Source: Branchiostoma floridae (taxonomy: Eukaryota > Chordata > Leptocardii > Amphioxiformes > Branchiostomatidae). Taken from it: a stretch of DNA of 64,000 bases. A model generated the notes under the pieces. That model did not search any database. It was not told the DNA's origin and saw only the letters and a program-made list of their open reading frames with translations. Positions 26,895 through 63,190 of the stretch are shown in pieces (the stretch's first letter is position 1; each line of letters begins with the position of its first letter). The stretch is from positions 19,910,692 to 19,974,691 of the forward strand of contig NC_049986.1 in the NCBI RefSeq assembly GCF_000003815.2, in the 5' to 3' direction. A program made the translations under genes and the position numbers.

Positions 26895-27816
26895 CTGTTG
26901 AGGAGAGGAGACAGAAGAAATAACATTTAAGATTTAAAGTCAATTTTCCAATTTTGAAGTTTTGCGTGTCTCTCTCTTGCCCGTTCTTGTTCTGTTCAAT
27001 CTTGTCTATGTCCCACTTTATACACAAGAAAAATAGAAAATTAGGTAGCACGTGAGTTCACCTTAGATATTTGCATGTGTATGTAACTTCAATTATGTTT
27101 CCCGCCAATAACTGTGCCCCACAGTAGTACACAAACAATGGACATGTTTGCACTCTCAGCTTTTCTCATAATGCTATAGCTATGCTTGTGCAGTTTTCAC
27201 CATCATCTTCATGACAAATCTACCGATTTAATTTTCACTGCGTAGCATACTATTTCCAAGAACTTACTCATCTCAAAGTTGGGACTTCAAAATTGGGTCT
27301 TTTTCGGCCAATTCTTCAATTTCTTGTACCGAACTTCCCCAGACATAAATTATGATAAAATAACCCCTTGCTCTTGAACTTTTTGCCTGAATAACATTCA
27401 GTTCATGCAAGGAGGTTAAAGATTTTTTTTAACCTCCTTGGTCAGAAGTTTTGGTTAAGACCGCATAAAGCCGGTCACAAATATGCAAATCAGGCGTTTT
27501 GCACATTGTCTTTTGAAAATTTGAGTCGGAGCAAATTTATCACCTGAGTTTTCATGTGGATTGGAACTAGGGTGGGTTTGGTAGTTTTGGTTCGAAGTTC
27601 GGAACAAGTCAAGAGTTTGGAACCTGGTTTCGTACGTCTTCCACCTACTCCCCATTTTGAATAGCCCAAAAAATTATATGAGGTACAATTTCTGCCCCAT
27701 CCTCCATAGTAGAGTAGAGTAGAGATCTTCGCGGTTTAGTAAGCTTCAACAAGAATCGCACCAAAATATAAATCTATTTTTTAAGTTTTCACTCTATGAT
27801 AAACTTACACTCTCAC

Positions 27817-27990
27817 CTGTCTGTTTATGAGACTTTGTGACTGACATGTGTCGGATAATGAACCAAACACACGCAGGGAATAAAGAGTCCACACAGCAAA
27901 CTAAAGCCAGCCTTCAAAATGGCGGACAAACGCATTGAAAGGTCAGAGGTCGCCAATTTGCAGAAACCTGATTATCCGGTTTTGTTCGAC
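27817..27990 (-). promoter_or_regulatory. Probable 5' non-coding exon and promoter of zinc-finger gene A
   Basis: On the minus strand AACAGACAG|gtgagagtg is a good donor, with GT at 27816-27815. Its partner is the acceptor at 26895. Plus-strand AAAATGGCGGAC near 27917 resembles a YY1-type core-promoter element. Confidence 0.45.
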
Positions 27991-29389
27991 GATACCAGGG
28001 GGTCAGGTAACGTCCACCAGGCCTTTCTAGTATGGATCTGAGAATTTGGCAAAAAATATTAGGCAATTTGGCCAGGGTGTCAGTCCACGCTAAGGTTGAT
28101 TTCTAAGGTACTTTCTAAGGTTGCTTTCTTAATTCATCATCATTCTTAATCATATATACAAACAAGTCTTCTCTGCATCATTCTCAGTTTAAAGTTGGGT
28201 TATTGATTTAGGAAATGGCCATATTGATTTGATTATATGGATGCCATTGAAAATGAAATTACTCCCCCCCCCCCAAAAAAAAAGTTGCATTCATTGTGAA
28301 ATCTAAGTGCATAGGAAGGCTGAATAAATGACTAAACACATGTTTGTATACTAAGTCATAGAGTATTAAACTTCATTCATATTTTCCTTTAAACTGGCCT
28401 GGAAGCGACGTTGGTATTCTATGAATGCAGTATCCATTTTCTGATATTTATTTGCAATATACAAATGTATCTGCTTATTTTACAGCTGGTTTGTACGATT
28501 TATTGTATGCCTGAAAAATGTTCTTTGTCGGAAATGCCTGAAAATTGATGTGCCCACAGATGTCATCCATATAATAAAGTCAACATGGCCTTAAAAGATG
28601 ATGAAATTCTTTTTGATTTATTCTGACAATGGCATCAACGTTAGCAAAACACAAGACACAGTCAGATGATGATAAATTTGTATATTTGTGCAATCAAGTG
28701 ATAACAGATGTACAAAAGCACATAGGTTGTCACATTATTCAAGCCTCTGAATAAATGTACTACTAAACTAGACTGATACAATTATAGTTGTAGCAGAATG
28801 TCCTAATTCTAATGACATTGGAAATGATTACTTATAATTATATAAGGTGTGGGTTACACCCAGCCATGAGTCATGGGGAAAATATTACGTACAAAGAAAA
28901 TAGACTCTCACATTAGCCAGAGGATGTTTTTATACACTTTTCAAAAATCTCCTGCAATTCATTTTTCCACATGTAAATAGGGTAACAAGGGCTCTGTGCC
29001 CCTATGCCCTAACCATGCACCCCTACTCAGGGGAGCAGATTCTCTGACAGCCATAAAATTTAGATTGACCAGAAATGCTACTAGGTCAAACAGTTTTTAA
29101 CTGTGATTTGCCTGACAGTACACCCCCCCTTCAAGAATATCTCATTTTGACTTACCAGGGAAGGGTAGAACTGTTTGTTAATCTGAGCTGCTTCATAATG
29201 CCCCCATTCAATCTTTTTAAATACAAACAGTTCTGTCCTGGAATTTTTGTCTTACCAAAAAAGCCTATATCACAGAATCATGAGTGCAAGATTCATCCAA
29301 CTTTTTTTATCACATCAAAGCTCCATGATCACATTCCTTGTACTACTAGTACAGGGTCCTGGGTTCATATCAGAGTACAGGAATTTCTG
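27991..29389. other. Intergenic region with repeats
   Basis: It contains a (C)n(A)n tract near 28264 and AT-rich sequence that probably includes the 3' UTR of zinc-finger gene B. A dispersed repeat lies at 28974-29085. No exon was recognised. Confidence 0.4.
28974..29085 (+). repeat. Dispersed repeat family X, copy 1
   Basis: The phrases 'ggggagcaga', 'ctctgaca', 'cataaaatt' and 'gatgctact/aatgctacta' recur in the same order at 46030-46165, and inverted at 60360-60450. Confidence 0.6.
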
Positions 29390-31841
29390 TCACTCTACCT
29401 TTGGTACATTACTTTCCTGTGTACCATAGAAGTCGTATAAGTCATTACGATCTTGAACCTCTTCCTTTACATGTACCTCTTCCTCTTCCTCCTCCTCATC
29501 TTCAAAATCAACATCTTCATCATCTAGATCACTCCAACTTTCCATCTCCTCCGGATCCTCCTCCTTGCTATCATCATCATCGTCATCATCATCATCATCA
29601 TAGTCATAGTCATCAACCTTCGTCTGGTATAACTTCCCTGTGTAATTTGAGCTCTGGTAACTTGGGTTCCACCTGTAATACGGGTTCTTCTGATGCTTGG
29701 CCATGTGGCGCTTCAGGTACTGTCTACTGACCGTCCTCATCTCACATTTATCACACTCAAAGTACTTGGCTGGATTGTGCGTGGCGATGTGGAGGTCGAT
29801 GGTGTGTTTCCGCGCGGCTGAAAAGTCGCAGAAGTCGCACTGGTAGGGTTTCTCCCCTGTGTGTCTTCTCACGTGTAGGGCCAAGCCTTGTTTATTAGCT
29901 GTCCTGAAACTACACAACTGGCACGCGTAGGGTTTCTCCCCCGTGTGCTTAGCCATGTGTAGGTCTAAACATCTCTTATTGGAAGCAGAGTAGTCGCACT
30001 GGTCACATTTATGCGGTTTCTCACCTGTGTGGGTCCTCAAGTGACGAGTCAAGGAAGTTCCATGCGCAAAGGCGATCCCGCATGTATCGCACAGGTAGGG
30101 TTTCTCACCTGTATGCTTTCTCCTATGAATGACAAGTTTACGTGCCTCTGATGCTTCGAAGCCACAGTCTTCACACAGGTAAGATTTTTCGACCGCATTC
30201 AGTGCGGCAGGTGGGAGAGCGTAGGTGTGGTCCCAGACGTCGGGTGCTTTCCCCGTGTGCTCGCTAAGATGCAGGGATAGAACGATTCTGTCTGGGGTCA
30301 TGAAGTCACACACCCCGCACATGTAATAGTCTTTCTTAGCTGTGTGTTCAGCATTCTGCTCTTCCGTGCTGTCTTTTGACAATACAGAAACGTCATTCTG
30401 ATCACCCGAATCGTCTTTCTCAGTGGTGTGTGTTGCCTTGTGCTGTTCCATACTGTCTTTAGACGATGTCGAAAAGTCGCACTGATCACATTTGTAGGGA
30501 TTTTCTCCGGTGTGTGTTGCCCTGTGAACCAGTAATAGCGAACTGTCTGCCGTTCTGAAGCCGCACCAACACACGTAGGGCTCAGTGTGCTTCAGCATGT
30601 GTTTGTCCAGGAAGTGTTTCTTTGAGGAGGCATAGCCGCACTGGTCACACTTGTAGGGGTACTTGTCTCCTGTGTGTGTCATCATGTGTGTGGATAGTTC
30701 AGACTTATAGTCACACTTGAAATCGCACTGTCCACACGCGTAGATGTAAGGTTTGAAGTCTTTATTAGTTTCACCAGTCCTTTGTAGTGAAACTTTGTTG
30801 TCGCTGGAGTGAGTAGTCATGTGCCTGTCCAGATAGTATTTCTTTGCAGAGGCATAGCTACACTGGTCACACTTGTAGGGATGTTTGTCACCTGTATGTA
30901 CGATCATATGTTTGGATAGCTCAGACTTATAATCACACTTGAAGTCGCACTGTCCACACGCATAGATGTAAGGTTTGAAGTCTTTATTAGTCTCACCTGT
31001 CGTTTGTAGTGGAACTTTGTTGTCACTGGAGTGAGTAGTCATATGCCTGTCTAAGTTGCTTTTACAGGCAAAACAAGTGTGGCATTGGTCACATTTGTAG
31101 GGTTTGTCAGGCCTGGCTGTGTGTATTTTCATATGTGGGGACAGTTGAGATTGATACTCGCATCTGAAGTCACAAAGTCCACATGAGTTGCTTTCTTTTC
31201 TCAGATGCTCACTTATTTGTGGTTTTGGCGCTGTGGGTCTGTCAAAATCCTGTTTCTGAGAAGCAGAGCTTGATTCTTCAGTTCCATGGTTTGCCATGTG
31301 TGGCTCCAAGTCGTATTTTCCGCTTGCAACATCGTTGCACTTGTCTAACTTGTAGGGCTTCTTCCCGGTACACACTTTCATGTGCTGTTCAATAAGGGTG
31401 GCCGTGTATGGTGACGTAAACCAGCACTGACTACACTTGAATTTTTTATGCACCGAATCACTGGGGGGCTTTGTGTCTGTGTGTTCTGCCACATTCCAGT
31501 CCATGTCATCTGTAAGAACCTGTACATGTGATGAGGTACTTTGGTCACCATATGGACTCTCGGGGATGTCAGAATTGTAAGGGTTTTCACCCGTATGCTT
31601 TTTCATGTGTACTGTAAGGTTTGCCATACGACTTGTTCTATATCCGCACTCTTCACAAATGTGGAAAGTCTTTGCAGAGACTTCACTGCAGGTTTCCTCA
31701 CATGGTCTCTCTGTTTCCTTGTCCTGCCGCCTTCCTGTGTCTGTTGTCTGGTCCTTTCTGCTGATATTCCTGTTCCCAGGATGTTCATCAATACGTGTGA
31801 GCAGTACAATAGGAAGAATACTGCTTGGCTTCTCCATCATT
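29390..31841 (-). CDS. C2H2 zinc-finger protein B with acidic C-terminus
   Basis: The ATG at 31840 directly follows an acceptor (aattcttag). The frame runs 816 residues to TGA at 29390. About 15 canonical C2H2 fingers and several degenerate ones are present, including one with the metal knuckle shortened to CWC. The N-terminus shares the REDQTTDTG-like module (RKDQTTDTGRRQDKE...CEETCS) with zinc-finger gene A, so the two are tandem paralogues. Residues of the form SDNKV-LQ-TGETNKDFKPYI followed by two fingers occur twice in succession (about 30630-31050), a recent internal duplication. The C-terminus has ten aspartates in a row and long Glu runs, which could contact basic proteins or act as an activation region. 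Nuclear location is inferred. No KRAB or BTB domain is seen. Confidence 0.92.
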
Positions 31842-32364
31842 CTAAGAATTGAGGAGAAAAAAGAGGAAAAATTGGAAGATCAGCTATATATACGTGTACT
31901 TTCTGTATCTACCTGTGATATTAAAGAGCTGATAAATTTGTTATAGAGTTTCCTCCATTGCTCCTACAACAACAACAATTGTTTATCATATCTGACCCTC
32001 CCAATTCCAATCTTCTAACATATTTGGGTCCCATGCATGCTTTCTTTCCCAATCAGAGGATTTTAATGGCAATCTCACAAAAGCAGAACTGTCATAATTT
32101 CATGGGACGTTGTACAAATTACTACAATCAAATGATTTGTAGGATCAATTTCAATCAAACTCAAAGCTCAGCCTAGCTATATGAACCTATCTCGCTATAT
32201 AATTTCGAATCCCTTGGGCAGCATTCTTTGGCTATATAAAAAAATCCCGTTATCACCTATCCGTTCCTTTTCTAGTGCACAAAAAAGGAACTTTGCGCCC
32301 CTCCCCCTAATTTTTGATGTGCCAGCACGGAAAAGTGAATGATGAAATTATCTCAAGGACTTAC

Positions 32365-39322: not shown

Positions 39323-42300
39323 TCAAGCAATTCTCATAACGAGGCAGTCCTCGTGAATGATTCCCTGCGTGTCCATCCCGCCATACACCAGCAGCATCGT
39401 CACCTTCCCATCATGCACTGGACCAATCCCAGCATGCTCCTCTGACCCTGAGGCTGCTGCACGACCTTGAGCTGCTGCTGTGACCTTGGGAGCAGCTTCC
39501 TCCGGCAGAAACTGCTCCGTAACGTCCAATATTGTCGGCTTACTGCTCGCCTCTTCCGCGCTAGGAACTAGTTCTTCAGAATCTGCATTTTCTGACTGAC
39601 TGGAATTTGCTGAAGGAGGAACACTGGGTTCTGTTGCCACAGTTTCTGTTGCCACAGTTTCTGTTGCCATGGTTTCTGATGCCATAGTTTCTGTCTGTTT
39701 TGCATCACCTGCCTCGTTTTCTGGACCAGTGTTCTGTTCTTCACTATCCTGTCCACTGGCACAATGTGTCAGTGATGCGGTGCCCTCTCCAGAGTTTTTT
39801 GGAGCCCCCGATCCCGATGAACCGGTCCCACCCACAGACAGGTGTATGATACATGCCCCATGGTCCAGCCTTGGTCCGGGGGGTGGGCCCTCAGGTCTCA
39901 GCTCACTCCACGTCAGTCTTTCTACAGGAAAAAAACACAAAACAAGGTGGTGAATCTGATGAATGATGTACATGAAAAAGCTAATTGCTTTGAAAACTAT
40001 TTCAATGAAATATTATGAATACAAAACTGTTATATAAATGTTAACACAGACAATATGGCTGTATAGAGTATCTACATTGCCTTAGAATGCTCATTACTAG
40101 GACATCCCTAATCAAAATCCAGTGAGAAAATGGGTATAAAAAACATGTTAAGTGCCTTTCCTAAGGGCACAACATTCAGCCTGCTAGGGATTTGAACCCT
40201 GAGCCTTCAAATCCTATTGCAACAACCCTAACCACAAGACTACCACCATAGTCCATACAACACTCACCAGTGTTGAGGACATGCATGGAGTCCAGAGCTC
40301 CCTCCTGGTTCATACCCCCAAACATGTACACCAGAGAACCATGCACCACAGCTGTGTGCGCCGCCCGGGCGGTGGGGACCGGACCCTTTGGCTTCAACCG
40401 CTTCCATTTCTTTGTGTCTGTTGAAAAAACAGAATGTTTGTAATTTTGATTCACTGGAAAGAGATATGATGGTTAATGCCATTTGAAATGCTTGTCTTTG
40501 TCATAAACTACATTTTGTACCTGGGGCTTTTGTATGCTAAGTTTTTAATTGTATAAGATGCCTTTCTAGAATAATAGTAGTGCATACTATCAGAACGTCT
40601 GACTCTTAGAGTCAGAGAGACTAGAGAATAACTTAATTCTAAACTGACTACAACAGAAATACGATAACTTGTGTGTAACTATGTAAGAATGTAAGACCAC
40701 AAATTAGTTTCAACTTTTAACATATTCAACATTGTCAAGGGGAAAAGGAGATTGTATTTGAAATCATATCAGTCAACAGAAAATGCATATTAACTAGTAG
40801 AAAAGATGTACATGCAATAATAAAAAAACTAAAACTATTAAATAGAGTTTGAAAAATCATTCAGTCCAAGGACTTGATACAAATCTAGAACTCACCCAGA
40901 TTGAGAACGTACAAGTCGTCATAGAACGTGACCCCTGACATGCCCCCGTGTACGTACAGCTTGTTGCCGACGGCAACCATCACATGACCATGGCGTGGTT
41001 TGGGCGGCTTGCCCTCCATCTGGGGCTGGCTCCAGGTCAGGGTTGCTAGGGAACCAGATGTAAACAACAAACAGTTGAATTCTGCATCACAAAATGTTTG
41101 ATCAACTAGTCTACATGCTTGAGTATACTTAAATATGACATTTAGTTCACATGAGAATGATTTCTTGGTTCTCGTATTTTAAAAGAGGCAGTGCTTGATG
41201 AAATATTCACATGACAACAGAGTTTGAGGGGCAAGTCGGTACTTTGGTGCACTCTGTTGTCATGATTAGAGAATGTCTAATGTTTTCTGTAGGTAAAGCA
41301 GAATCTCTGATTGGCTGACAGCTGGTTAGAGGCCATGTTGAAACTTTTTAAGTTCTGTTAAACATAGCCTCCACAAGGTATATTGTATTTATCTATTTAT
41401 TTGTCCATTTATTTGTTAGTGTAGCTGTATACATGCATGGTGTAGGCCACAGGCGAGGCTCTGAGTATACACTACGAGAATAAATCATCACACACCTGCA
41501 TCAAAGACATGGAGTTTCCTGTCTTCTATGGGCTCGGCCCCCGTCTTGCCCCCTCCCCACACGTACAGCCTGTCCCCCCGGTGGGATGTATAGTGACAGG
41601 TGCGTGGGGAGGGCGGGGTGCCCTGCACATCAGCTGTGGTCCAGGTACCTGTCCCTGTAACCAAGCAGAATACAATGTTACTATGGCAACATGGCAATGA
41701 GATAGCACAGATATGTTCAACTGTGGCCCAGGTACCCATCTCTGTACTAGTACCAAGAAAAGGTACAATCATCAATACATAGGAGAAAGTTGCTAAAGCA
41801 GGAATTAGGATACTGTAAATTTGTTTATTTTGGCTGGGACAGGAAAGGAGGTTCTTGTAGAGTTTTCAGTTTCTGTTGAAAAAATTCTTGAGTAAAATAC
41901 TATAAATGTATTTAAGTTTGCAGGGATTTGATTTTGCGGAAGTGGGGAAAAAGTGGACTGTAGCTAGTACACACCTGTATCTAGCACCTGGATGTTGTTA
42001 AGGTTGCAGCCCTGCTCTGCCCCTCCGAACACGAACACCTTGCTTGGCTGGCTTTCAGGTGTGAAGCAGGTGTGTTCATACCTGGCCGTCAGCCCCGCCC
42101 AGTCCGGCTTCTCCCATGTGTACTTGTCTGATGATGGGAGTGAACAATGTATGTTAATACTTCGATGAAGGTTAGACAATCAGGTGATAAGGCCACCCAA
42201 TTCATTTGTTGCTTCTCAGATTTTTTCAGGTTTGAACAATGTATGTTATTTGTTGGTTAGCAGTATCATGAATTTTTTTATACAAGTTTGTGCCTGGAGG

Positions 42301-42922
42301 CTATTTGCAAGTATATGGTAGACACATATGTAGGGTGCATGCATTTGTACATGTTGCATGAAACAACTAGAGTTGTACCTCAGTTTGGAGAGTAATTTCT
42401 TTATCATGGGCCACATGACTTTTTCTGGTCATGTTTATCAGGAGTTCTATTTTATACCATTTTCTCTATCTGCGAGACATTAAGAAAACGATACCCATAT
42501 AATAGAAAGCCTGATAAAAACACCTAAAAAAACGTTAAAAAACAACTGGGGCCTAACCTTTGCTTGGAGAGTATAACAGAAACAGGGATATGCACTGCCC
42601 GATACACCATTTGGTGTGGGAAGGTCACTTCTTAACTCTTGTAAAACTCTAAACATAAGATCTAGACCACCATACCAACTGTCATCCATTTAAAAACTTA
42701 CCTAAGTCCAGCACAAAAGTATCAGCAAACGGCCCGCTGGGGTTGGCACCTCCGACCAGCACCACCCTCCCACTGCCCCCCACCCTGGGGAGGTACGTAC
42801 AGGTGTGCCCCACCGTCAGGCTGGGCCCACCACCCCCTGGGGATAGGACATACCACATCCCCGGGGCAGGGGGGTCCGTCAGGGGCAGCTCCAGTATGGG
42901 GTGGAGCTCCATGCTTTTTCTC
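39323..42922 (-). CDS. RABEPK: Rab9 effector protein with kelch motifs
   Basis: Coding exons in transcript order: 42912-42702, 42127-41975, 41654-41496, 41045-40896, 40417-40268, 39921-39323. All introns are phase 1, giving 473 residues. RABEPK (p40) binds Rab9 and assists endosome-to-Golgi transport. Each exon encodes one kelch blade, recognised by R.xH(T/A) then VxVxGG and LDLG/LDT: VVLVGGANPSGPF, VFVFGGAEQG, LYVWGGGKTGAEP, LYVHGGMSGVTFYDDLYVLN, VYMFGGMNQEGALDSMHVLN, LLVYGGMDTQG. The exon with the ATG has an acceptor just upstream (ttttttttccag, 42922), so a 5' non-coding exon must exist. The last blade is split by an insertion of roughly 120 residues, rich in Ser/Glu and containing repeated ETMATETVATE. 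Human RABEPK has a shorter insertion in the same place. The start of the third coding exon offers two acceptors six bases apart. Confidence 0.93.
40145..40262 (-). mobile_element. tRNA-derived SINE
   Basis: Read on the minus strand it has an A-box-like TAGTCTTGTGGTTAGGG and a B-box-like GGGTTCAAATCCC, then 'ttgtgcccttaggaaaggca'. The last phrase is shared with 63915-63945. It lies in intron 5 of RABEPK. Confidence 0.7.
41380..41485 (+). repeat. 3' end fragment of a LINE-like or SINE-like repeat
   Basis: T-rich 'tatttatctatttatttg' followed by 'agctgtatacatgcatggt' and 'ggcgaggctctgagtatac', resembling the tail near 9175-9260. Confidence 0.45.
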
Positions 42923-43472
42923 TGGAAAAAAAGAAACAAAGTCAATGAAGGTTAGACATCCAGGTAATAAGTAAGATAGGCTGAATAGCAGTTACTCAAG
43001 CAACTGGATTCTAGTACATGAACTTTGAAGCCAATTCCTTACTAGTAAGTAAATGCCACTTGGCACACAAAAACAAAGGACAATTGGTCAGGAAAACAAA
43101 CTTTAGGTTATAATTAAGGTATAATCACATGAAACGTAAGATTGATTTGACATATTCATAGTGAATCTATTTTTGCAGATTTGGCAATGACAGTGTCACA
43201 ATCAAACTGCCAATCATGATATAAGTACTGTACATATGTAGCCCTCCCTCCTCCAAAGACTTCAAGGGCACTTGCCATTAAATTTGTTTGCCTCTGATCT
43301 TTGCACTTAGGACTTGTAGCCTTCATGTGATCTAAATGGCAAACAAACAAGTCTGTTTCAGTGTTTGAAAAGAAAACCAAGGTCATCCAAAAAACCATCA
43401 ACAACAATACTGCTTGCCAGGTACGGTACCCAAGTCTAACAGGTGGTCTAACTTGAGAGAACCCAAGACACC

Positions 43473-43613
43473 ATGGGTGCTGACTACAGGGTTTTTGCTG
43501 CAACTTTTCTGACAGTGGTCCTGAGTGTTTCTGCCTACAAACCTGTTATACTTCTACATGGCATCTTTGAGCCAGCATCTTCAATGAACGCACTCCAAGA
43601 CCTGGTTACAAAG
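43473..43613 (+). CDS. PPT2-like first exon V1
   Basis: 47 codons: signal peptide (AATFLTVVLSVSA), then YKPVILLHGIFEPASSMNAL and a C-terminal K at the donor AAG|gtatgg, phase 0. It lies 561 bp from the RABEPK ATG in divergent orientation. It is the most upstream of seven such exons that could splice to the shared acceptor at 51392. Confidence 0.75.
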
Positions 43614-44472
43614 GTATGGTTTTTCACTTGTATTCATTCATTCTCTCATTCCATTTTTGTCAACCGATTTGCTGCTTTGTTTATCACACCAAGTACATTG
43701 TTTTTAATTTTCTACCTTGACCACCATTGATGTCAATGGACCCACATTGTTTGTACATAAACATGTACCTACACTCGGCTACAGTTATACTAATAGAAAT
43801 AATATTGAATCACCCATAATGTGACATATATATACTATATATATAATATAGTAGTCAGGTAATTTCAACAAAAGGTTCTCAGTCCTTGGTGGTCCTTACC
43901 AAGTCTTTTTGATACAGGGTTGTCCTATTACATCTGTGGAACTTTGTAGTCTCTATAGACTGACTACCCTGGTTATTGCTAAGGGAGTTTTGCTACTAGA
44001 GGGTGATTGGTCCTCCACAAAGAGGGGAAATGCTAACCTTAGGTTGGACTTACTCCCCCGGCCGATTTCCCAATTTTTGCCAAATTCTACGATCCACGCA
44101 CCCCCCCTTGGAAGGCCTGCTGGTGGCTAGGAACTTCAGGGCAGGGGGTCTTATCTCCCTTTACTTACCAGCCAGCTGATATGACTGTTCTCCAGACTTT
44201 GTTCTTTGACCCTTTAACTCAGATGCTCCACCTTACTTGTTTGGCAAAGATGTGTCTTATTTTTGTTGAGTGAGCAATGCTGCAAGGTACAGCTTAAAAT
44301 GATCAAAAACTCTATCTATTTGCCCATAACAATTCCTCAATGTCATTTACGTCAACTTTTTTTTTACGAATCTTTGATATTTGCAACTTTCCTTTATCAC
44401 AAATAAATGTCATATTTTTGCTGTCCACAACAAAATCAGCATTTTCTCCTAAAAAAGATCATCAATTACCTT

Positions 44473-44717
44473 ATTACTGTAAATGCCTAGAACTAGCTAG
44501 TAATCGACAAGTTTGCAGGGATTTAACTACATGGTAGGGACAAACTCTCCAGAGCATTTGCGGTGGTTTGAATTTGAAGGTCGCAGTTGAAACAAGGGCA
44601 GGCAGAGAACAGAACATGCATTTTCATGGTGGTTCTAATGAAGTTATCGATAAATAGGTCACTGTGGAAACCATGAACAATTTAAACTAACGCAAAAATG
44701 TCCATGTTTACAGTAAT
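44473..44717. repeat. MITE with ATTACTGTAAA termini
   Basis: The element starts ATTACTGTAAATG and ends CATGTTTACAGTAAT. The interior phrases 'gcagggattt' and 'gcggtggttt' recur at 11283-11360, 12970-13060 and 41904-41945. Confidence 0.75.
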
Positions 44718-44841
44718 CCCCCTGCTGCTGGTCATGAGGTGGCCTTTGGTACCAAATTTGTTTTGGTCATGAGGCCAGGTCGTTTGTAAACTGATATCAG
44801 ACTTCAGAGTCCACTACAGCCAAATTTGAGAGTTGTCCAAC

Positions 44842-45015
44842 ATGGCTGCAGATGTCAGGTCACACCCCCTTTTTGTGAGGCACCTACTTGTTGTTCTGTT
44901 ACTGGTGTGTTCAGCTAGGTACCAAAATGCAGCCGTGTACAAACCGGTGTTGATCATCCATGGTATATTTGATGCTGTAACGGACTTGGACGATTTGCAG
45001 ACCATGATAGGAAAG
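44842..45015 (+). CDS. PPT2-like first exon V2
   Basis: 58 codons with hydrophobic signal HLLVVLLLVCSA, then VYKPVLIIHGIFDAVTDLDD and LQTMIGK at the donor AAG|gtactg, phase 0. The 5' context 'cactacagccaaattt...ccaac-ATG' matches V3 and V4. Confidence 0.75.
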
Positions 45016-45333
45016 GTACTGTAACAGTTATGATATCAACCTTAAAGTTTGATATTTTAGCTTTCCTACATTGTAAACACAGTAGTAGTATTTTTGCTGT
45101 CCACAAAAAAAAGAAGAAGAAAAAAAAATACAATTCAGCATCTTCCCTAAAAAAAGATCAACCAATAACTAATTTCTACCTGGTAAGGTGCCCTGGCCTA
45201 GCAGTGGACTAAACTAACTTGAGTGGCCTTTGGCATCAAATAAATTTATTTGGGTCAAGCAGACCGAAGGTGTTCAGTGGACTAAGATGAGACATTCAGA
45301 GTTCACTACAGCCAAATTGACCAACTGACCAAC

Positions 45334-45507
45334 ATGCCAGCTGGGAGTTCCAGCTTTCATCCCTCTGTGAGGCAACTACTTGTTGTTCTGATACTGATGT
45401 GTTCAGCGCCGTGCCAAAATGCAGCAGCGTACAAACCCGTGTTGCTTATCCACGGTTTATCAGAGCGCGCAGCGGATATGGAAGGTTTTCAGGACCTGAT
45501 AGGAAAG
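45334..45507 (+). CDS. PPT2-like first exon V3
   Basis: 58 codons with signal QLLVVLILMCSA, then AYKPVLLIHGLSERAADMEG and FQDLIGK at the donor AAG|gtaatc, phase 0. The ERAADMEG segment is nearly shared with V4, suggesting recent duplication or conversion. The usual Phe after HG(I/L) is replaced by Ser. Confidence 0.75.
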
Positions 45508-45772
45508 GTAATCTCAGAATAATTATCTACAGATTACCTACTAGTAACCGACTAACTTTGTTTCTGCTAACTTTGACATTTCGATTTTCCTTCATCCAGT
45601 ATTTTTGCTGTCCACACAAAAATATTGTACAATTTAGCAGCATCTTCCACTTCAAAAATTAACTGTCTCTATCTCTGCCCATTGTCACCAAATTTGTTCT
45701 GGTCAAGCGTGCCAAAGTCCTTAAAGCACACTCATATCAGTGTCCACCACAGCCAGATTCTAACTGACCAAC

Positions 45773-45943
45773 ATGTCAGGGAGTCTGACTCTGAGGCTGA
45801 GCTCTTTTATGATGAGGCTGCTTGTTGTTCTGTTACTGGCGTGTTCAGCTCAAAACACCTCAGCGTACAAACCTGTGATGATCATCCATGGTATATTAGA
45901 GCGCGCAGCGGATATGGAAGGTTGGAAAGACATGATAGAAAAG
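45773..45943 (+). CDS. PPT2-like first exon V4
   Basis: 57 codons with signal RLLVVLLLACSA, then AYKPVMIIHGILERAADMEG and WKDMIEK at the donor AAG|gtagca, phase 0. Context upstream is 'caccacagccagattctaac'. Confidence 0.75.
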
Positions 45944-46029
45944 GTAGCATTTTTTTTTCACATCTACCATAACCAGCAGGATGTATTTTATTTTTAGCCA
46001 GGCATGCATCCGGGCGTCCTTTGGACGAA

Positions 46030-46165
46030 CTGTTTTACAAAACATAACAAACTGGAACGCACTGGATGCCTTAGAGTAATTAAGACACCCCTTACCTTGG
46101 GGAGCAGACCCTCTGACAGGCATAAAATTCTGAGAGACCAGGCCGGGATGCTACTACAGCAGGTC
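46030..46165 (+). repeat. Dispersed repeat family X, copy 2
   Basis: Shares 'ggggagcagaccctctgaca', 'cataaaatt' and 'gatgctact' with 28974-29085. Confidence 0.65.
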
Positions 46166-46194
46166 ACATGATTGGTACACATGTACATAGAATG

Positions 46195-46262
46195 ACAGGA
46201 TTCAAACCAAGGACCTCTGGGTCATGTACGCTGCAGTAACACCAGCACAACCTCATGAAAGA
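46195..46262 (-). repeat. tRNA-SINE-like fragment
   Basis: On the minus strand it reads GGTTTGAATCC (B-box-like) preceded by a decayed tRNA-like body. Confidence 0.4.
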
Positions 46263-46423
46263 GATTTGTTACAAGGGCACAAAATCATGGGACTTTGTGG
46301 GATCTCCCCCTCAAAAAATATCATCCCTTATCAGACAGGGCACTAGTACTTGTAAGCAGTTATTGTCTTCCTGCTGAAGTGGCCTTTGGCCCCAAATTTG
46401 TTGGTCAAGCATTAATGTCCAAC

Positions 46424-46606
46424 ATGTCGGCAACTTTTAGGTCTCATCCTTGTCTTGTGGGACAACTAAATGTAGTACTTGTTGTTCTATTACTGGTATG
46501 TTCAACTCCGTGCAAAAGCACCGTAGCGCACAAACCCGTGTTGATCATCCATGGACTATTTGGGGTTCTAACAGGCTTTAGTGATTTGCAGCACATTATA
46601 GAAAAG
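46424..46606 (+). CDS. PPT2-like first exon V5
   Basis: 61 codons from ATG 46424; an in-frame ATG three codons upstream is possible. Signal LNVVLVVLLLVCS, then AHKPVLIIHGLFGVLTGFSD and LQHIIEK at the donor AAG|gtaacc, phase 0. The conserved Tyr of YKPV is His here. The upstream block 'gtggcctttggccccaaatt' matches those before V2 and V3. Confidence 0.72.
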
Positions 46607-46984
46607 GTAACCTTAAGTTCTTTGTAGAACAACCCAAGTCATTTAGAATATTCTGTTTTTCAGTCTTATTACATGTAGGACGTCATATTAGTATATATGG
46701 CTGCTGGTTGAGCTACTTGTGCCTGCATGGCGTAATGGCAATTTTTAAAGGTATATAACACACATTTGATGACGTCATCAGCCATTCTGAGTTTTGATTG
46801 GGTGAAGTTGCAAATGGAAGAAAGAAACAGAATGCAGCCAGCAGGCCAGCAAAAATAACATGTTTTCCTTCAGAAACATAAAAAAGCCCGATGAGTGTTT
46901 CTAACTGGAGTGATACTACCCGATGTACCCTTCTCTACTCATACTGAGTCATAGTGTGAGTTTAAATTAGTGGCAGTTGCCAAC

Positions 46985-47161
46985 ATGTCAGGTTTTGGGT
47001 CCTACCTGTCTTGTGTGGTGCTAGTAGTAGTACATGTCTTCTTGCTACTGCTGCCTACAAATCAGTACCAACATGCCACGGCATACAAACCTGTCCTAGT
47101 GTTTCATGGAGTACTCATGGATGTTGTGGAACTTCAGTCTTTTCAAGATATGATAACGAAG
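46985..47161 (+). CDS. PPT2-like first exon V6
   Basis: 59 codons with a long hydrophobic signal (VVLVVVHVFLLLLP), then AYKPVLVFHGVLMDVVELQS and FQDMITK at the donor AAG|gtatgt, phase 0. It has the best consensus donor of the seven. Confidence 0.73.
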
Positions 47162-47633
47162 GTATGTAGCAATCAGGATTTTTACAGGGTAGTATAGGGG
47201 GCAGTGTTGAGTATAGGGGGCATCTTTGTATGGCAATCAAATACTAGTAGTCATAAGATAGTGCTTGTTTGGGGGTCAGGGAAATCCGCCCCCTGTAACG
47301 TTTTTGAATTTATAATAGTAATATTACTTTCAGAAACACTAGTACTATTCCCTGCATTTTGAAGTGCTCAGTAAGATAGTGAGTGAAGGCCGAATGTTAT
47401 CGAATAAAGCCAAAATGTTTTACCTTAAAGCTTTGTTACAAAACAAAAGAAAAATCCCCTAGGCTTAAAACAGCATTTCAAAATGGTGGCAGCTGCTCTA
47501 AACCTGAGAAACCAAGTGTGAGTATAAGCAACAATGGTCAGCAGGGCAGTTCACAAGTATGTTGATTAAGTACCTGGATACCAATACCTTGATACCACAT
47601 ACAGGAGAGAAGGTATCATATAAACATGTTTCC

Positions 47634-47805
47634 TAGTCTCCAAGCAGACCCTACGGTGCCTTAGAAATAGTATCAAAGCTGGCAAGGTACCAGGTGCCCG
47701 GTGCCCGTTTGACTCCCTTAGCCGGCTATCTCCCTTTGGCCGGCTATACTCCTTTGCCAGCTTTGATATTGTTTCCAAGGCACCGTAGGGTCTGCTTGGA
47801 GACTA
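47634..47805. mobile_element. Mutator-like MITE, family T, copy 1
   Basis: The inverted ends TAGTCTCCAAGCAGACCCTA and the complement at 47786-47805 continue about 45 bp inward. A 9-bp direct repeat CATGTTTCC flanks it (47625-47633, 47806-47814). The interior repeats 'agccggctat'. Confidence 0.88.
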
Positions 47806-47973
47806 CATGTTTCCCACATGTTTATATAACTACGCCCCCTTTACCATGGGACCTGTTTTACATGGTCTGGAGATAGTTTGATCTGGACATCATTTCTTTT
47901 GAAAACAGTGTTTAAATCTATTGACAATACATAGAACTTTGATAATAACTTGCATTCATGTAACGGTTTCTAG

Positions 47974-48592
47974 ACGACTCGGCACCTGAGACAACTCGGC
48001 CCTAGTCGGCACCATACTTACTCGGCACATAACTTTTATATTTTGCACTCGAAGAATGATAATTCTATCATTCCGGCAGCATAATAAGTGACATAAGAAT
48101 GTAAAAATCAATCTCACCCTATGAGGTAACGTTTTAGATACAAATTTTTAGGATACAAGATCGTCCAATTCCAAAACATGTTGCGGGCCCCGCCGGCGAC
48201 GCCATTTTTAGTTGTTATATCGGCGTTCTTTCACGATGTCACTCTACTTCTCTTCTACTATGACCGTGTTTGCAAGTACGTACAAATGAAAATAGATGTA
48301 ATAAGCATTTCAATATATTTTGTTGGTCATAGATTACAACTGTCTGTGGGTTTCAAAAACACGTTGAGATGACTGATCTGATATAGACAGAGCGTCGGCC
48401 GCGCCGTTCAAAGTTACATTGAAGTTGAAGTGACGTTCAGAGCCTCAAAATGTCCGTAAAATTGTGCCGACTGTATGACTTACAAGTTATTGCAGTGAGA
48501 GAAATGTTTTGCAGTTAAAATATTGTGAAGGTTTGTGAGAAACGCAATTCCCAATTGGCTAGGTGCCGAGTCGTCCCAGGTGCCGAGTTGTC
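47974..48592. repeat. Inverted-repeat element with ACGACTCGGCACCT ends
   Basis: The left end alternates 'gactcggcacc' and 'acaactcggc'. The right end is the inverse ('gccgagtcgtcccaggtgcc'). About 620 bp, no convincing coding frame (a 64-residue frame at 48178-48372 is unrecognised). Confidence 0.75.
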
Positions 48593-49282
48593 CTGATAAT
48601 CACAAATTCTATGATACTTGGTAATTTTGGTATCTTGAGTTTGATTTACCCCATACTTGAATTTTTGTTCTATTTATTCTCGTGCGGCAAAATCACGAAA
48701 GATATAGATTGGTGAAATTGAACTGGATCGGTCCTTAATTTGACATTTTCTAGAAAGAACTGAAAAACTGGTTTCCGCACATTTTACATGCTTCCGGCTG
48801 CCCCCCTCCCCATTGGTGCTTTTTGTCGATTAAAAATCTTTTAGCTGACTAAATCTACTCGCTATTGTGTTTGGTTTACTTATAGAAAGCCTATAGATTA
48901 AACCATACTTACGGTATAACTGCCAAGTGTTCCAAGAGTTCGCTAGAAGCAAAACTCTTGTCGTCAAACAAAACAGACGGAGAACTCCATTTTGGAACGC
49001 GCGCGGTCTCCAACAACAAATACTGTAAACATGGCCAAGAATTTGGTGCCAACAAAATTACGTAATGATATAAGAGAATAAAAGTTTAACTTACAATTTT
49101 TACAATAACTGACAACTAAAATGATTAATAATTCTTTTTTTATCAACCATTCTGTGAAATTTTATTTAAAAGAATAAAATTTACATAAGTCATTTTAAAA
49201 AAACTTTCTCAACATTCGCACCGAGCGAATAGATTGCTACTTAAACTCACTATATTTCGGTCACGATAGGTCAACAACAAAC
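48593..49282. other. Region upstream of PPT2 exon V7, probable promoter
   Basis: No exon is seen. A GC-rich patch 'ggaacgcgcgcggtctcc' near 48995 and 'acatggcggcggggtgcg' at the V7 start suggest a CpG-type promoter for the conventional PPT2 transcript. Confidence 0.4.
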
Positions 49283-52200
49283 ATGGCGGCGGGGTGCGTA
49301 AAAGTTTTCCCCAAATTCGTCCTTTCGTCGTTCCTGGTGCTTCTCTCCGCGTTACTGGTCCAAATCAGGGCCTACAAGCCCATAATCATCATACACGGCA
49401 TATTCGATCACGCCAGTACCTTTGACAACTTCAGCGTCGCGATCAAAAAGGTTCGTAACATGCGTTTTTTGAAGGTTAGACATCCTGGTAAACAAACATG
49501 ATCGTAACGTTGACATGATAAATGTTTACCTGCACATAATTTGGGAAGCAAATTCTTCTTCCTTTTCTGCTTCTCCAAACAAATAAGGTCAATGTGCGCT
49601 GGACCAGATGGTTGTCATGTCACCATGGTTACTGGTAGAGTAGCAGACACCCTGTCCTGTGGTGTTCGATATTTGTAGAATGCAGCAAGCCGCAGCATTC
49701 TGCAGTGGCGTCCTCTCTCCGAAAGGAGGAGGAACGCCCGCCTCACCTTCTTTTATAAGTTAGTTAACAACAAGATTAACATAGACACACAGAACCTACT
49801 GATTCCGACCCAAGGGCGAACCCGAGGCAGCCATCAACATAAGTACAAACCAATCTTTGCAAGAACAGACACATACAAGTACTCATATTTTCCTAGAACA
49901 ATTCCGGAGTGGAATTCCCTGCCTGGTGCGGTAGTAAGTGCTCCCACAGTTGAGAGCTTCCGCGCCAGGCAGGAGGGCTGCCCGCCCTAACCCGGGACCT
50001 CAGCTCCCCCCCTACTTTGCCCCTTGCGGGGTTATATGGGGGTAACCCATGATGATGATGATGATGATGCAAGTGAGTCAGGACAGCTAGAGAGCTAGCT
50101 CATATAGTTAAATTAAGCGTGTGTAAGGTTGTGTTTCACTTTCAGAAAAGATAAACAGATCTAGAGCAGAAGTTTGTTAGGCCAGACAATTTGAAGGTTA
50201 ACATTATGTATCTGTTTGCAAGTCACAGTTACCTATCTACTTGTCTTCAATGATATGTCAGCTATTCATATTCGCACCACAGTTGTCCGATCCAACATCA
50301 TGCAACTTTGACTAGAAAACTGTCACTTTAAATGTAATGTTGTGTAGAAATGTAGAAATTAGAGGGGCGAGTAGGAACAGAAAGAAACCAACATGCCGGA
50401 TCGAACCCGGGTTGGCAGATTACCAACCAGCAGTGAAACCACTGTGCTAGAAAAGGCTGATCAGCCATTTCACACAGCTGTTTGACACTTCTTACACCCC
50501 CCCACCCCCACACTGTTACAGTTGTCTTGTCAGCTATTGGTAACAAAAAAGTTGTAATTTGATATTACAACTAACATCATATGATTTGGGGGACATTTTA
50601 GCTACTGTTCTATAGCTATTTAGCCCAATCATTTCAGGTTATTGTCATTATTATCATCAATGATCTAGGTATGACGTTCCAATAGGTGTCATGTACCAGA
50701 AACGTGATGTAATCATCAAGGAGCTTTTATCAGAGCTCCTTGGTAATCATGCATGACTCTTTCCAAATTTTTTATTTAGAAGCTATGAGTTGTAGTAATT
50801 TGTCCATGGATAGCAGCTCAGATAATCTATTACATGTACACTTCAAATGATCTTAAAATCGATTTCAGATCCCTGCAAAACAATATGCAAAACAGTGGAT
50901 TGACATGGCTCCTAGTCTATTAATCAATTGAAATTGTCAGGAACACCAAGGAAATCCTGGATGGAATGTGTTTGGAGAGACATTAAAACGTGCGGTCAGA
51001 GTGACAGGGGTGAACCCACTGGACAGAGCAGCATGGAAGTGCAGTGTAAAAACTAACAGACTGTTGCCTACCCGAGTCAGGGACCCCATCAGTAGTATAA
51101 TCAAATACTGGATAGAACTACTATTGGCGCTCAGTTCAGTTCCATTCATTTCATCCTCGTAGTATGAGGTGCCACGAAGAATGCCGCTCCAGACTTCTTA
51201 ATCCAGCATGGCGGCCAGCAGATCGCGGTCCTTATGATAATAAATGAATGGATCTGTTGATAAATCTGGATCTCTGGCACCAATGTGACCATCATCGATG
51301 AGTACACATTTGTTCATACTGTATCACGTGCACATTCATTCCAATTAAACAGATGATCCTGCATTAGTAATGTTTTTCTCTCCCCTCTCCAGGCCCACCC
51401 TGGCACCAATGTGACCATCATCGATGAGTACACAGAACTGTTCAGCCTCTATCCCATGTGGGAGCAGGTCAGGGGGTTTCAGAAGACCATGGCTCCCATC
51501 ATGCAACAGGCCAAGGATGGGGTGCACATTATCTGCTATTCTCAGGGTCAGTTATAACACATTTAGTTTCTTTGCAGTAATAAAGATTTTCAAGTTTTGA
51601 ACCAATATAAGGAAAAATCATGATGTATTTTTACTTTGACATCATTCTTAGCCTAATATTGTACATGTGTATTCTTATAATTGAAGTTATTTGGTTTGAG
51701 TTTTCAATGAAAAGTTCAAGGAAACCATAACACAATACAGTTTGCCCCCGTATATACTCACTGATGCTGCATATTGGTACAATTCCCTTTATATCACTTT
51801 AGATTCTCGTGTGGCAACTTATTATGGCATCTGGTGGAGTTATGAGAGTAACTGTTGATGTTACCATGAGTACACAGATTACTTAATTCTGATATACCGG
51901 TCTTGATCACATTTCTTTCAGTCAAAAGGCACTGTTATTTTCCTTGTAAGACCAACAGATATATTTGTCATATGACAAAATTCTGTTGTTTGATTGTTTG
52001 TATGACAGGTGGCCTTATATGTCGAGGTGTTCTAGAGTCGATGGACGACCACAACGTGGACACCTTTATTTCACTGTCTTCTCCACTCATGGGGCAATAT
52101 GGAGGTAAAACTGCAACATCTTATTGCTTTATCTACATGTGTATCGTTCATTCAAATCTAATTGACTAATTTCATGTAAAATCAAACAAGGATAATTGGA

Positions 52201-54852
52201 GAAAATGGAGATGCTCTACATAGAAGAGAACAAAACACTGTGTTTTATTTTAAATTTTAATTTAAATCTGATTTGATTGCCAAACTGCTCATAAAAAGGA
52301 TAGAATTTGACAACTTTATTCTTTCAGAAGATTGATTTGAGAAAAAATCGAACAAAAGAACTCCATTTGCTTGCAGTGGAGTGTGTTCTATTTAATTGAT
52401 GGAAGCCTGTGTGATACAACTAAGAAGCCCGATATGGAAAATAAGTTCCAGTCTGGAACACTTGTATCGTACATTATCACGACCCAGGTATGACATAAGC
52501 ACATACATATATCATCACTAATAATAATGATAATATTATTATATCTTAAGGCATGAGTACTAGTGTCAGGTGATAAAGTTGCTCTGCTATTTATTTTTAT
52601 TTTCTTGATAATAGAGAGAGAGAAAAAAAGGGGGAAAAACATCAAACATGTGCCAAATCTGATTATCATGCCTTTTCCCTCCCATTGCAGACACAGAGTA
52701 CCTGAAGTATGTGTTTCCCCACTATCTGAAGGAGAACCTGTATAAAGTAGCCTATACTTCCTATGGACAGGACATCTCCATCAGTAACTACTGGAACGGT
52801 AAATATGGACTGTCTTATTAATTTCAATACAAGTTCTATAATTACTGTGAATAAGAGATGCTGTACGCAATGTTCACATATATCTAATGTACTTGTTCAG
52901 CAAATTTCTGTTGTTCAAGCTAACCTTTAGTGTATTTCTTTTTTGTCATTAACACTAGAAGCAAACCATTTGGTCAATGGAAGATGAGCCCATGATTATG
53001 TCTAGATACATGTACATTATACACATTGGTGTATCAGGAACCTGCAGCTGGCCCTTCGTCAAACACTGCTCTAATTTCCTGCTTACATTGTTGCAAGCAT
53101 GCTGACAGTTCTGTGCAAGAATATGACGGTCATGGATGGATGCCATTAGTATATAAATAATCAATGATTTTGTTGTTTATGTTGTTTACTTGTTTACTCC
53201 CCAGACCCCCACCACCAGGACCTCTACAAGGAGAACAGTGTTTTCCTCGCTGTTTTAAACAACCAGACGGCCAAAAATGACAAAAGTAAAGGTAAGGGTA
53301 CTGCAGAGATACAAATTACGTTTAGTCTGTGTAATGCAAACTCTGCTATCCGGAGCTTGTAGCCTCCTCCCCGCGGAGCGGCAATGTAGGATGGGCCTAA
53401 GAAGCGCGATTAAATCAGGCTAAGATTACATTAATAAATCTATCAACATTCATCATTATATATATGAATATCACTCTGATTTGAGTTCACCATATATTTG
53501 GTTTCTGTTTTTTCAAAGGCATGATATGAATGCAAATTTATATTCTGTATGATTTTAATCTGCAGTACTACTTCTACTATTCCAGGAAGAGTAGTAATGT
53601 ATCACTAAGGGAGATTCTGATAAACCAAACCAAATTACCCAAAACCAAAAAAAACTATGGAGGTTAAAATCTTATGATTTGCCAAAACCAAATAAATGAA
53701 TTTGCTGTATTCAGGGTAAGACAGTACAAGCTGTGTTGTGAGCTGGAAACTGATGAATTTTCCCATCACAGACTGTTTTTTTTTCCACCCCAGAATACAA
53801 GAATAACTTCCTCAAGCTGAAGAAACTGGTGCTGATTGGAGGGCCAGATGATGGTGTCATTACCCCCTGGCAGTCCAGGTAGGAACTGCAGCCTTGTCTG
53901 GTTGTTCATAGGAATACAAAAATGATCTGAGCAGACTGAACTAACATGATGCTGATAATATTAATGTTGAAAGCTGTTAATCATTGTTCTGTGTTTTTTT
54001 TTTCCAGCCACTTTGGTTTCTATGATGACAATGAGACAGTGGTGGAGATGAAAGAACAGGAGGTATGTCATCCTTTCCTGGCTCTGTCATTCCATTTTCA
54101 AAGCCTTTTCACACCTTGGCCTTTGGACCAGGGCTGTCTCCAGGACCCAGGACGTAAATTTGCTTGTTGGAAAAAACTCTCAGAAAATCGAATGAGAATG
54201 ATTGTATTTTCCTAGGCTCAAAATGACACACTTCATAATCATGCAACCTAACATGATGAGCTCCCAAGCAATGAGATGGCACTGATTCATTCATTCATCT
54301 AATGCTTTGCAGCACTTCTCAGCTGATTCAGGGTTGGACAAGTTGTAAAATTCACTTGTCCTATTAGGCAAGTACATATTAAAAGATTTGCTTGCCCGAA
54401 ATATTATTAATTGAATAACATTTTTAGATATTTTTTCACTAACTGTCTTCCACTTTGAAATGGAATTCTTTTATTTTTGGCTCTGTTTTTCTGTGTTTAC
54501 CAATGCTTGATGCCATGACTATGAAAGGTAACAAGAATATCAAAATCTTTCTCATGGAAAAATCTTACTTGTCCAATCAGGCAAGTGGGGTAAGACTTGG
54601 GGTAGGACTTGCAGTTGCCCAATCAGCATTTTCACTTGCCCTGGACAATTGGGCTAATGGACTTGTCCAACCCTGTGATAACATATTGTACACTTCTCTT
54701 CTCTGTAGGTGTACCAGAGGGACTACTTTGGGCTGAAGACCATGGATGCGAGGGGAGATGTCACGACGTACGAGATCCCTGGGGTTCAACATCTCAATTG
54801 GCACAAAAATCTCACAGTTTTCAACGACTACATCGAAAAGTGGCTTACTTGA
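49283..54852 (+). CDS. PPT2: Palmitoyl-protein thioesterase 2-like lysosomal hydrolase (V7 plus shared exons)
   Basis: Exons: 49283-49450 (V7), 51393-51546, 52009-52104, 52691-52798, 53205-53291, 53794-53878, 54008-54062, 54709-54852. Phases join to give 298 residues, the usual length. PPT2 cleaves thioester-linked acyl chains (S-thioesterase) in lysosomes. The signal peptide is followed by [13 protein letters not shown] (oxyanion strand). The nucleophile S106 is in [25 protein letters not shown] and [13 protein letters not shown] are typical PPT2 segments. The acid is within [11 protein letters not shown] (D223/D224) and H283 is in NWHKN. The N-glycosylation motifs NVT and NQT are present. 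The V7 exon has a weak donor, AAG|gttcgt. Six other first exons upstream, all phase 0, could replace it; nothing else in the window could complete them. Separate decayed gene copies are an alternative explanation for the extra exons. Confidence 0.93.
49670..50066 (+). mobile_element. 3' end of a CR1/L2-like non-LTR retrotransposon
   Basis: A frame reads [20 protein letters not shown] then [20 protein letters not shown] and SFRARQ, the C-terminal motif of LINE ORF2 proteins. A short UTR follows with 'ccccttgcggggttata', and it ends in (GAT)n. It lies in PPT2 intron 1. The UTR phrase recurs at 63793-63808. Confidence 0.8.
50386..50458 (-). mobile_element. tRNA-derived SINE fragment
   Basis: On the minus strand 'ctagcacagtggtttcactg' (A-box region) is followed by GGGTTCGATCC (B box) 30 bases on. 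There is no cloverleaf with closing acceptor arms, so a functional tRNA gene is unlikely. Confidence 0.6.
50937..51240 (+). mobile_element. Decayed LINE ORF2 3' relic
   Basis: One frame gives [17 protein letters not shown], and the next part (frame broken by a stop) resembles a conserved DR.AWK region, as at the C-termini of many non-LTR retrotransposon RT proteins. Stops and frameshifts show it is dead. Confidence 0.6.
51268..51305 (+). repeat. Partial duplicate of PPT2 exon 2
   Basis: 'ctggcaccaatgtgaccatc' plus 'atcgatgagtacaca' is identical to 51402-51433 in exon 2. It lies about 130 bp upstream, without an acceptor. Confidence 0.85.
54329..54675. mobile_element. hAT-like MITE in the last PPT2 intron
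   Basis: The inverted ends CAGGGTTGGACAAGT and ACTTGTCCAACCCTG bound about 347 bp with several 'acttg(t)cc...caggcaagt' subrepeats. The CAGGG start is hAT-like. No clear TSD. Confidence 0.7.

Positions 54853-58005: not shown

Positions 58006-63190
<5,185 letters not shown>

What the first reader, a model, noticed from the sequence alone, without database searches (positions are those of the whole stretch)
43473..54852. Seven tandem first exons feeding one PPT2 body: a possible variable-first-exon system
Exons V1-V7 (43473-43613, 44842-45015, 45334-45507, 45773-45943, 46424-46606, 46985-47161, 49283-49450) each encode a signal peptide plus the YKPV(I/L)..HG strand. Each ends in Lys at a phase-0 AAG|gt donor. 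Only one set of exons 2-8 exists downstream (51393-54852), starting in phase 0. The exons differ strongly from each other yet all stay open, which suggests purifying or diversifying selection rather than decay. The arrangement recalls clustered protocadherin or UGT1 loci, where alternative promoters choose one first exon. I know of no such report for a palmitoyl-thioesterase.
Basis: partly seen in the sequence, partly recalled or inferred. Interest (0 to 1): 0.92.

Follow-up and report, generated by a model that had tools for sequence, protein, structure and literature searches.

The report
Seven alternative first exons for PPT2
In what looks like an amphioxus genome, one thioesterase gene has seven intact but different starting exons lined up in front of a single shared remainder, so it can probably make several versions of one enzyme, a layout best known from vertebrate detoxification and nerve-cell identity genes.

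Summary
Seven tandem exons (V1-V7) each start with ATG, encode a signal-peptide-like N-terminus plus the first strand and oxyanion-loop segment of PPT2, and end in Lys at a phase-0 AAG|gt donor. One downstream set of seven exons completes a PPT2 that aligns with solved human PPT2 without a gap at the junction. Genome searches found no second PPT2 body; searches with three of the seven V exons found no V-like exon elsewhere better than E 6. No broken V copy was found in the window. Neutral decay fits poorly: 3 of 20,000 simulations kept V2-V5 intact, 0 of 20,000 all seven. Deep branches show purifying selection, but V2-V5 do not differ from omega 1. Best reading: a multiple-variable-first-exon gene working like UGT1, with V7, beside a CpG-rich stretch, as probable housekeeping start. 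Transcription of V1-V6 and their splicing to 51393 are inferred, not shown. A new member of a known architecture; the searches made turned up no such report for this gene.

The parts
43473..43613 (+). V1, 47 codons: signal-peptide-like N-terminus + YKPVILLHG segment, AAG|GTATGG donor
44739..44841 (+). upstream block shared by V2, V3 and V4 (a 35-nt part also before V5); candidate promoter-proximal sequence
   Evidence: part has one further match on contig C6
44842..45015 (+). V2, 58 codons, AAG|GTACTG donor
45334..45507 (+). V3, 58 codons, AAG|GTAATC donor
45773..45943 (+). V4, 57 codons, AAG|GTAGCA donor
46424..46606 (+). V5, 61 codons, AAG|GTAACC donor
46985..47161 (+). V6, 59 codons, AAG|GTATGT donor
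47751..49750 (.). CpG-rich stretch (o/e 0.90-1.42 in 500-nt windows) in front of and over V7; possible constitutive promoter, perhaps bidirectional
   Evidence: the role is inference
49283..49450 (+). V7, 56 codons, AAG|GTTCGT donor; probable housekeeping first exon
51274..51308 (+). 35-nt exact copy of positions 51400-51434 of exon 2, just upstream of the acceptor; not an exon
51393..51546 (+). exon 2 (phase 0), best-scoring acceptor of the body; encodes CYSQG
52009..52104 (+). exon 3
52691..52798 (+). exon 4
53205..53291 (+). exon 5
53794..53878 (+). exon 6 (GGPDDG)
54008..54062 (+). exon 7
54709..54852 (+). exon 8 with the C-terminal His and stop

Best explanation
This is one PPT2 gene with a tandem array of seven alternative first coding exons and one constant body (exons 2-8). 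Shown from sequence: seven intact initiating exons, one body found, compatible phase, no decayed copies found. Inferred: transcription starts in front of one V exon at a time. The cap-proximal V donor joins the strong acceptor at 51393, and downstream V exons are removed with the intron because they have no clear acceptor of their own. Each mRNA then encodes a secreted or lysosomal PPT2 with its own signal peptide, first strand, loop after the HG oxyanion motif and first helix, on a common catalytic body (Ser, Asp and His all in exons 2-8; assignment recalled). V7, beside a CpG-rich stretch, is probably the constitutive ancestral start. V1-V6 are older and younger duplicates under other control, giving tissue- or substrate-specific forms.
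For: Exact anatomy, 7 of 7. V7+body aligns with human PPT2 without a gap at the junction; all seven have the same 27-residue mature length. One PPT2 body found in the 513-Mb assembly and V-like exons essentially only here. No broken copies found. An in-frame stop 3-55 codons upstream of each ATG and A at -3 in 7 of 7; best acceptor-like scores upstream are ordinary. Hydrophobic positions kept while loop and helix positions vary. M0 omega 0.45, LRT 22 against 1; deep branches 0.15-0.21. Neutral retention of all seven 0 of 20,000, of V2-V5 3 of 20,000.
Against: No transcript data. Within V2-V5 omega does not differ from 1, and the deep branches are saturated, so their omega is rough. V donors score 3.8-8.9 on an approximate matrix, V2 and V4 lowest (3.8, 4.1); the best GT site of a random 250-nt stretch has median 5.8, so the donors alone prove nothing. 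No TATA or initiator match within 250 nt of V1-V5 and one TATA-like site at -233 of V6; no element common to all found; the V1-V6 region is CpG-poor. Among V2-V4 the upstream block is about as similar as the exons, and V2-V3 intron flank aligns at 73%, so exon-only conservation is not seen there.
Confidence: 0.72

Rival explanations
1. Only V7 is a working first exon; V1-V6 are duplicated exon-1 fragments that are silent or decaying.
For: Only V7 has a CpG-rich promoter-like stretch; V2-V5 omega near 1; some donors weak.
Against: 6 of 6 keep ATG, frame, donor and length of the mature part; simulated neutral retention is 3 of 20,000 for V2-V5 and 0 of 20,000 for V1-V6; no disrupted copy found in the window; deep branches constrained.
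Confidence: 0.15
2. A mixture: V7 and some of V1-V6 make full PPT2, while others are used for regulation only or make short secreted peptides by intron retention.
For: V frames run on past the donor for some codons, e.g. V1 to 43730 and V5 to 46627; uneven donor scores.
Against: All seven keep the same phase-0 Lys donor and 27-residue mature length, which short peptides would not need.
Confidence: 0.1
3. V2-V7 are mutually exclusive internal exons rather than first exons.
For: Some acceptor-like sites lie upstream (V4 score 9.0 at -173, V1 7.3 at -162, V5 6.7 at -85), above the weakest of the body's seven acceptors (6.4).
Against: Every ATG has an in-frame stop 3-55 codons upstream; acceptor scores are like random 250-nt stretches (median 6.4) and all below six of the body's seven acceptors (10.2-16.9); each V encodes a signal-peptide-like start.
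Confidence: 0.03

Closest known systems
UGT1 cluster (vertebrate UDP-glucuronosyltransferases)
   [quoted passage not shown]).
   Different: UGT1 variable exons encode a whole acceptor-recognition domain; here the variable mature part is only 27 residues. The families are unrelated. That paper calls the UGT1 organisation vertebrate-specific, while this genome appears to be a cephalochordate (inference).
Clustered protocadherins (Pcdh alpha and gamma)
   Same: Variable first exons arrayed before constant exons (PMC1885805, section 3), with promoter choice (PMC7811963, passages).
   Different: A thioesterase, not a cadherin; the upstream block tested is not shared by all seven V exons; no evidence of stochastic or per-cell choice.
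GCNT2 (IGNT) cluster
   Same: Multiple variable first exons in tandem in an enzyme gene (PMC1885805, abstract).
   Different: Unrelated enzyme; larger variable exons (recalled).
PPT2, human (1PJA)
   Same: Whole protein incl. catalytic motifs; best solved match E 1.2e-106.
   Different: No array of coding first exons is known to me in human PPT2 (recalled; one search found no paper with 'PPT2' and 'alternative first exon').

Membership tests
PPT2 (PF02089) | family profile over most of the protein and closest to PPT2, not PPT1 | tested here: met
   PF02089 E 4.3e-74, residues 33-279 of 298; 1PJA 359 bits against 74 for PPT1
PPT2 (PF02089) | catalytic Ser-Asp-His motifs | tested here: met
   YSQGG, GGPDDG and the C-terminal His region align with 1PJA; the residue assignment is recalled
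Multiple-variable-first-exon gene | tandem array of homologous coding first exons | tested here: met
   7 exons
Multiple-variable-first-exon gene | one downstream constant exon set, compatible in phase | tested here: met
Multiple-variable-first-exon gene | variable exons lack 3' splice sites | tested here: inconclusive
   no acceptor-like site stands out; V1, V4 and V5 have sites scoring 7.3, 9.0 and 6.7 within 250 nt, random median 6.4
Multiple-variable-first-exon gene | own promoter before each variable exon | tested here: inconclusive
   CpG-rich stretch only at V7; shared upstream block only at V2-V5
Multiple-variable-first-exon gene | mRNAs joining each variable exon to the constant set | not testable with these tools
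   no RNA data held
Clustered protocadherin / UGT1 as families | cadherin or glycosyltransferase domains | tested here: not met
   the protein matches PF02089 and DUF676 only; it resembles them only in layout

The most novel reading that the evidence does not exclude
A promoter-selected cassette system in an invertebrate chordate that swaps the signal peptide, the oxyanion-side loop and the first helix of a lysosomal or secreted thioesterase. It would give one locus seven enzymes with different destinations or acyl-substrate preferences, the recent members V2-V5 being diversified by selection rather than drift.
Probability: 0.3. Interest if true: 0.78.

Novelty: new member of a known kind. Interest (0 to 1): 0.58.

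Why it matters
Among coding variable-first-exon arrays, UGT1, GCNT2 and UGT2A were described as vertebrate-specific (PMC1885805, section 14). A seven-member array in PPT2 of an apparent amphioxus would be an independent origin in another enzyme class. Because the swapped part is only 27 mature residues beside the oxyanion hole, it would be an unusually small natural cassette for testing how that segment sets thioesterase specificity. It also bears on PPT2, whose natural substrates are poorly known (recalled).

Tried and rejected
Second PPT2 body elsewhere: not found by full protein, body alone or Pfam family. Besides the window, the family search gave a locus on C2 near 13.90 Mb (PPT1-like by eye) and two loci below the cut-off (C2:25.27 Mb, C7:25.10 Mb); tblastn of the body at E up to 5 gave no match in the two, and by eye they read like other alpha/beta hydrolases.

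Remnants of whole-gene duplication: tblastn of the body finds nothing between the V exons; the one hit between V1 and exon 2 is chance-level, on the minus strand at 49503-49556 (E 4.6). The only body fragment seen outside the exons is the 35-nt exact copy at 51274-51308, from the repeat search.

Exon-only conservation among V2-V4: did not discriminate. Upstream 110 nt 62-73%, exons 68-74%, farther upstream 28-41%, downstream intron 41%, 46% and, for V2-V3, 73%.

Universal promoter element: none found with the V2 core, which scores 19, 14 and 17 of 31 at V1, V6 and V7 against a background mean of 15.1, maximum 21, in 227 pieces. Other motifs were not searched beyond TATA and initiator. Part of the block also matches one place on C6, so it may be a dispersed sequence.

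Literature, exact phrases only: 'palmitoyl-protein thioesterase 2' + 'amphioxus' 0 papers; 'PPT2' + 'alternative first exon' 0; 'palmitoyl-protein thioesterase' + 'variable first exon' 0. Searches listed 1, 2 and 2 papers; of these PMC3338513 has the terms only in its reference list, PMC7811963 was seen in passages, the two in the listing only. (28 papers, 20 listed) was seen in the listing only. Zhang, Haws and Wu 2004 on multiple variable first exons is not held.

Structure prediction was not used: a spliced product is not read letter for letter from the DNA, and I did not want to test that rule.

Full report
Where it is. The window lies in G000:C8:19910692-19974691 of a genome of 513,431,437 bases in 431 contigs. 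A paper passage bears only on B. floridae having 19 chromosomes (PMC12373286, passages).

The exons. Seven of seven V exons are exactly where stated, with lengths 141, 174, 174, 171, 183, 177 and 168, all multiples of three, open, ATG to AAG, followed by GT. The body has seven exons, 51393-54852, with AG before each and GT after the six internal ones, in phase 0 at entry, ending in TGA. V7 plus body gives 298 aa: PF02089, E 4.3e-74, and closest to solved human PPT2 1PJA, E 1.2e-106, with no gap where V and body meet.

More than chance. A simple grammar of the mature part, derived from the seven, occurs seven times in six frames of 64 kb, only in the V exons. A protein profile built from them finds seven significant hits, the weakest 1.9e-17; the next (E 0.064) is an overlapping frame at V6. 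A DNA profile finds the same seven, with nothing else below E 0.8. Whole-genome searches with V3 found all seven here and one E 6 hit elsewhere; with V6 they found six of the seven, missing V7; with the V7+body protein they found four of the seven. The other four V exons were not used as queries, so sensitivity for very divergent copies elsewhere is limited. One PPT2 body was found; the other PF02089 locus above cut-off, on C2, is PPT1-like by eye.

Initiating exons. Each ATG has an in-frame stop 3, 4, 7, 10, 16, 28 or 55 codons upstream, and A at -3 in 7 of 7 (V2-V6 may share this by descent). Best acceptor-like sites within 250 nt upstream score 3.3-9.0, median 5.9, against a random median of 6.4; body acceptors score 6.4-16.9, the highest being 51393. 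Donors score 3.8-8.9, against 5.6-11.2 in the body and a median of 5.8 for the best GT site of random 250-nt stretches (approximate matrices from memory). N-termini have hydrophobic cores (Kyte-Doolittle 2.55-3.45 over 11 residues) and candidate cleavage sites by a crude rule; no dedicated signal-peptide predictor was available. Pfam finds no family over its cut-off in the V exons alone.

Variation. In the 27-residue mature part K, P, H, G and the final K are invariant. Residues 6-8, 11, 18, 21 and 24-25 stay hydrophobic, while 12-17, 19-20, 23 and 26 vary widely. There is no indel in this part in any of seven, whereas the signal region has several. Identity to 1PJA there is 7-10 of 27; V7 and V1 score best by BLOSUM62.

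Selection. With two ratios the deep branches have 0.15-0.21 and branches within V2-V5 0.82-0.85, not different from 1 (LRT 0.4-0.8); in the mature part the recent value is 1.04-1.53, also not different from 1. Deep branches are saturated, several near the upper bound of the fit, so their omega is rough (pairwise values). Neutral simulation from V2 with nucleotide branch lengths: V2-V5 all open in 252 of 20,000; with ATG and GT also kept, 3 of 20,000 (30 and 0 with branch lengths times 0.75 and 1.25); all seven 0 of 20,000; V1-V6 0 of 20,000. Indels were ignored, which favours the null. So passive decay is unlikely, but the kind of selection on V2-V5 is open.

Promoters and neighbours. CpG observed/expected in 500-nt windows is 0.90-1.42 over 47.75-49.75 kb, covering V7 and its upstream side; 0.11-0.52 over V1-V6; 0-0.66 over and around the body. 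Other stretches of the window are CpG-rich too (e.g. 5-9 and 61-64 kb), so this marks unmethylated-looking DNA rather than a proven promoter; G+C at V7 is only 0.37. A TATATT lies 32 nt before the V7 ATG, but a stricter pattern finds no TATA box there. A kelch gene on the minus strand, RABEPK-like by a probe from memory, has its likely ATG at 42912, with an acceptor-like TTTTTTTCCAG just upstream of it (by eye). It therefore probably has a 5' exon farther right. The nearest CpG-rich candidate is the V7 stretch, in which case V1-V6 lie antisense inside its 5'-UTR intron; this is inference. V2, V3 and V4 share about 105 nt upstream, V5 a part of it. V3 and V4 share an exact run of about 25 nt in the mature part, a hint of gene conversion (alignment).

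How it most likely works. Promoter choice selects the 5'-most V exon; its donor joins 51393; later V exons go out with the intron. That is the logic described for UGT1 and Pcdh (PMC1885805, abstract and sections 3 and 14; PMC7811963, passages). Inferred: promoters, splicing and distinct enzyme properties.

Novelty. It works like a variable-first-exon gene and meets the two testable anatomical criteria; the acceptor and promoter criteria are inconclusive and the transcript criterion untestable here. It is not a member of the UGT or Pcdh families. Three exact-phrase searches of the paper library that pair PPT2 or palmitoyl-protein thioesterase with amphioxus or with a first-exon phrase returned none.

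Noticed in passing
39323-42912 (-): Kelch-repeat gene (Pfam, one exon scanned), RABEPK-like by a remembered probe, facing V1 head to head, with an acceptor-like site just before its ATG; its 5' exon may lie beyond V1-V6.
   Followed up: partly
51274-51308: Exact 35-nt copy of part of exon 2, 126 nt upstream of the original.
   Followed up: no
47634-47805: Inverted repeat, 52-nt arms 94% complementary, 68 nt apart, like a small mobile element, between V6 and V7.
   Followed up: no
42162-42191, 42942-42971, 49466-49495: 30-nt direct repeat (67-87% to the reference), one copy just after the V7 donor.
   Followed up: no
44736-44790 and G000:C6:14351902-14351956: Part of the block upstream of V2 also matches one place on another contig (82% over 55 nt).
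   Followed up: no
45991-46133 and 60392-60512: Two stretches 68% alike in opposite orientation, one between V4 and V5: perhaps an old dispersed repeat.
   Followed up: no
23953-31879 (-): Two long open frames of 1034 and 829 aa; the second scans as C2H2 zinc fingers, the first reads like zinc fingers by eye; AT skew -0.26 at 24-28 kb.
   Followed up: partly
61543-62682 (-): Helicase exon (Helicase_C and HA2_N) in CpG-rich DNA, tail to tail with PPT2.
   Followed up: partly
15189-16133 (+): Open frame with SDIHLG, GDIFE and GNHD motifs, like a metallophosphoesterase (motifs recalled).
   Followed up: no
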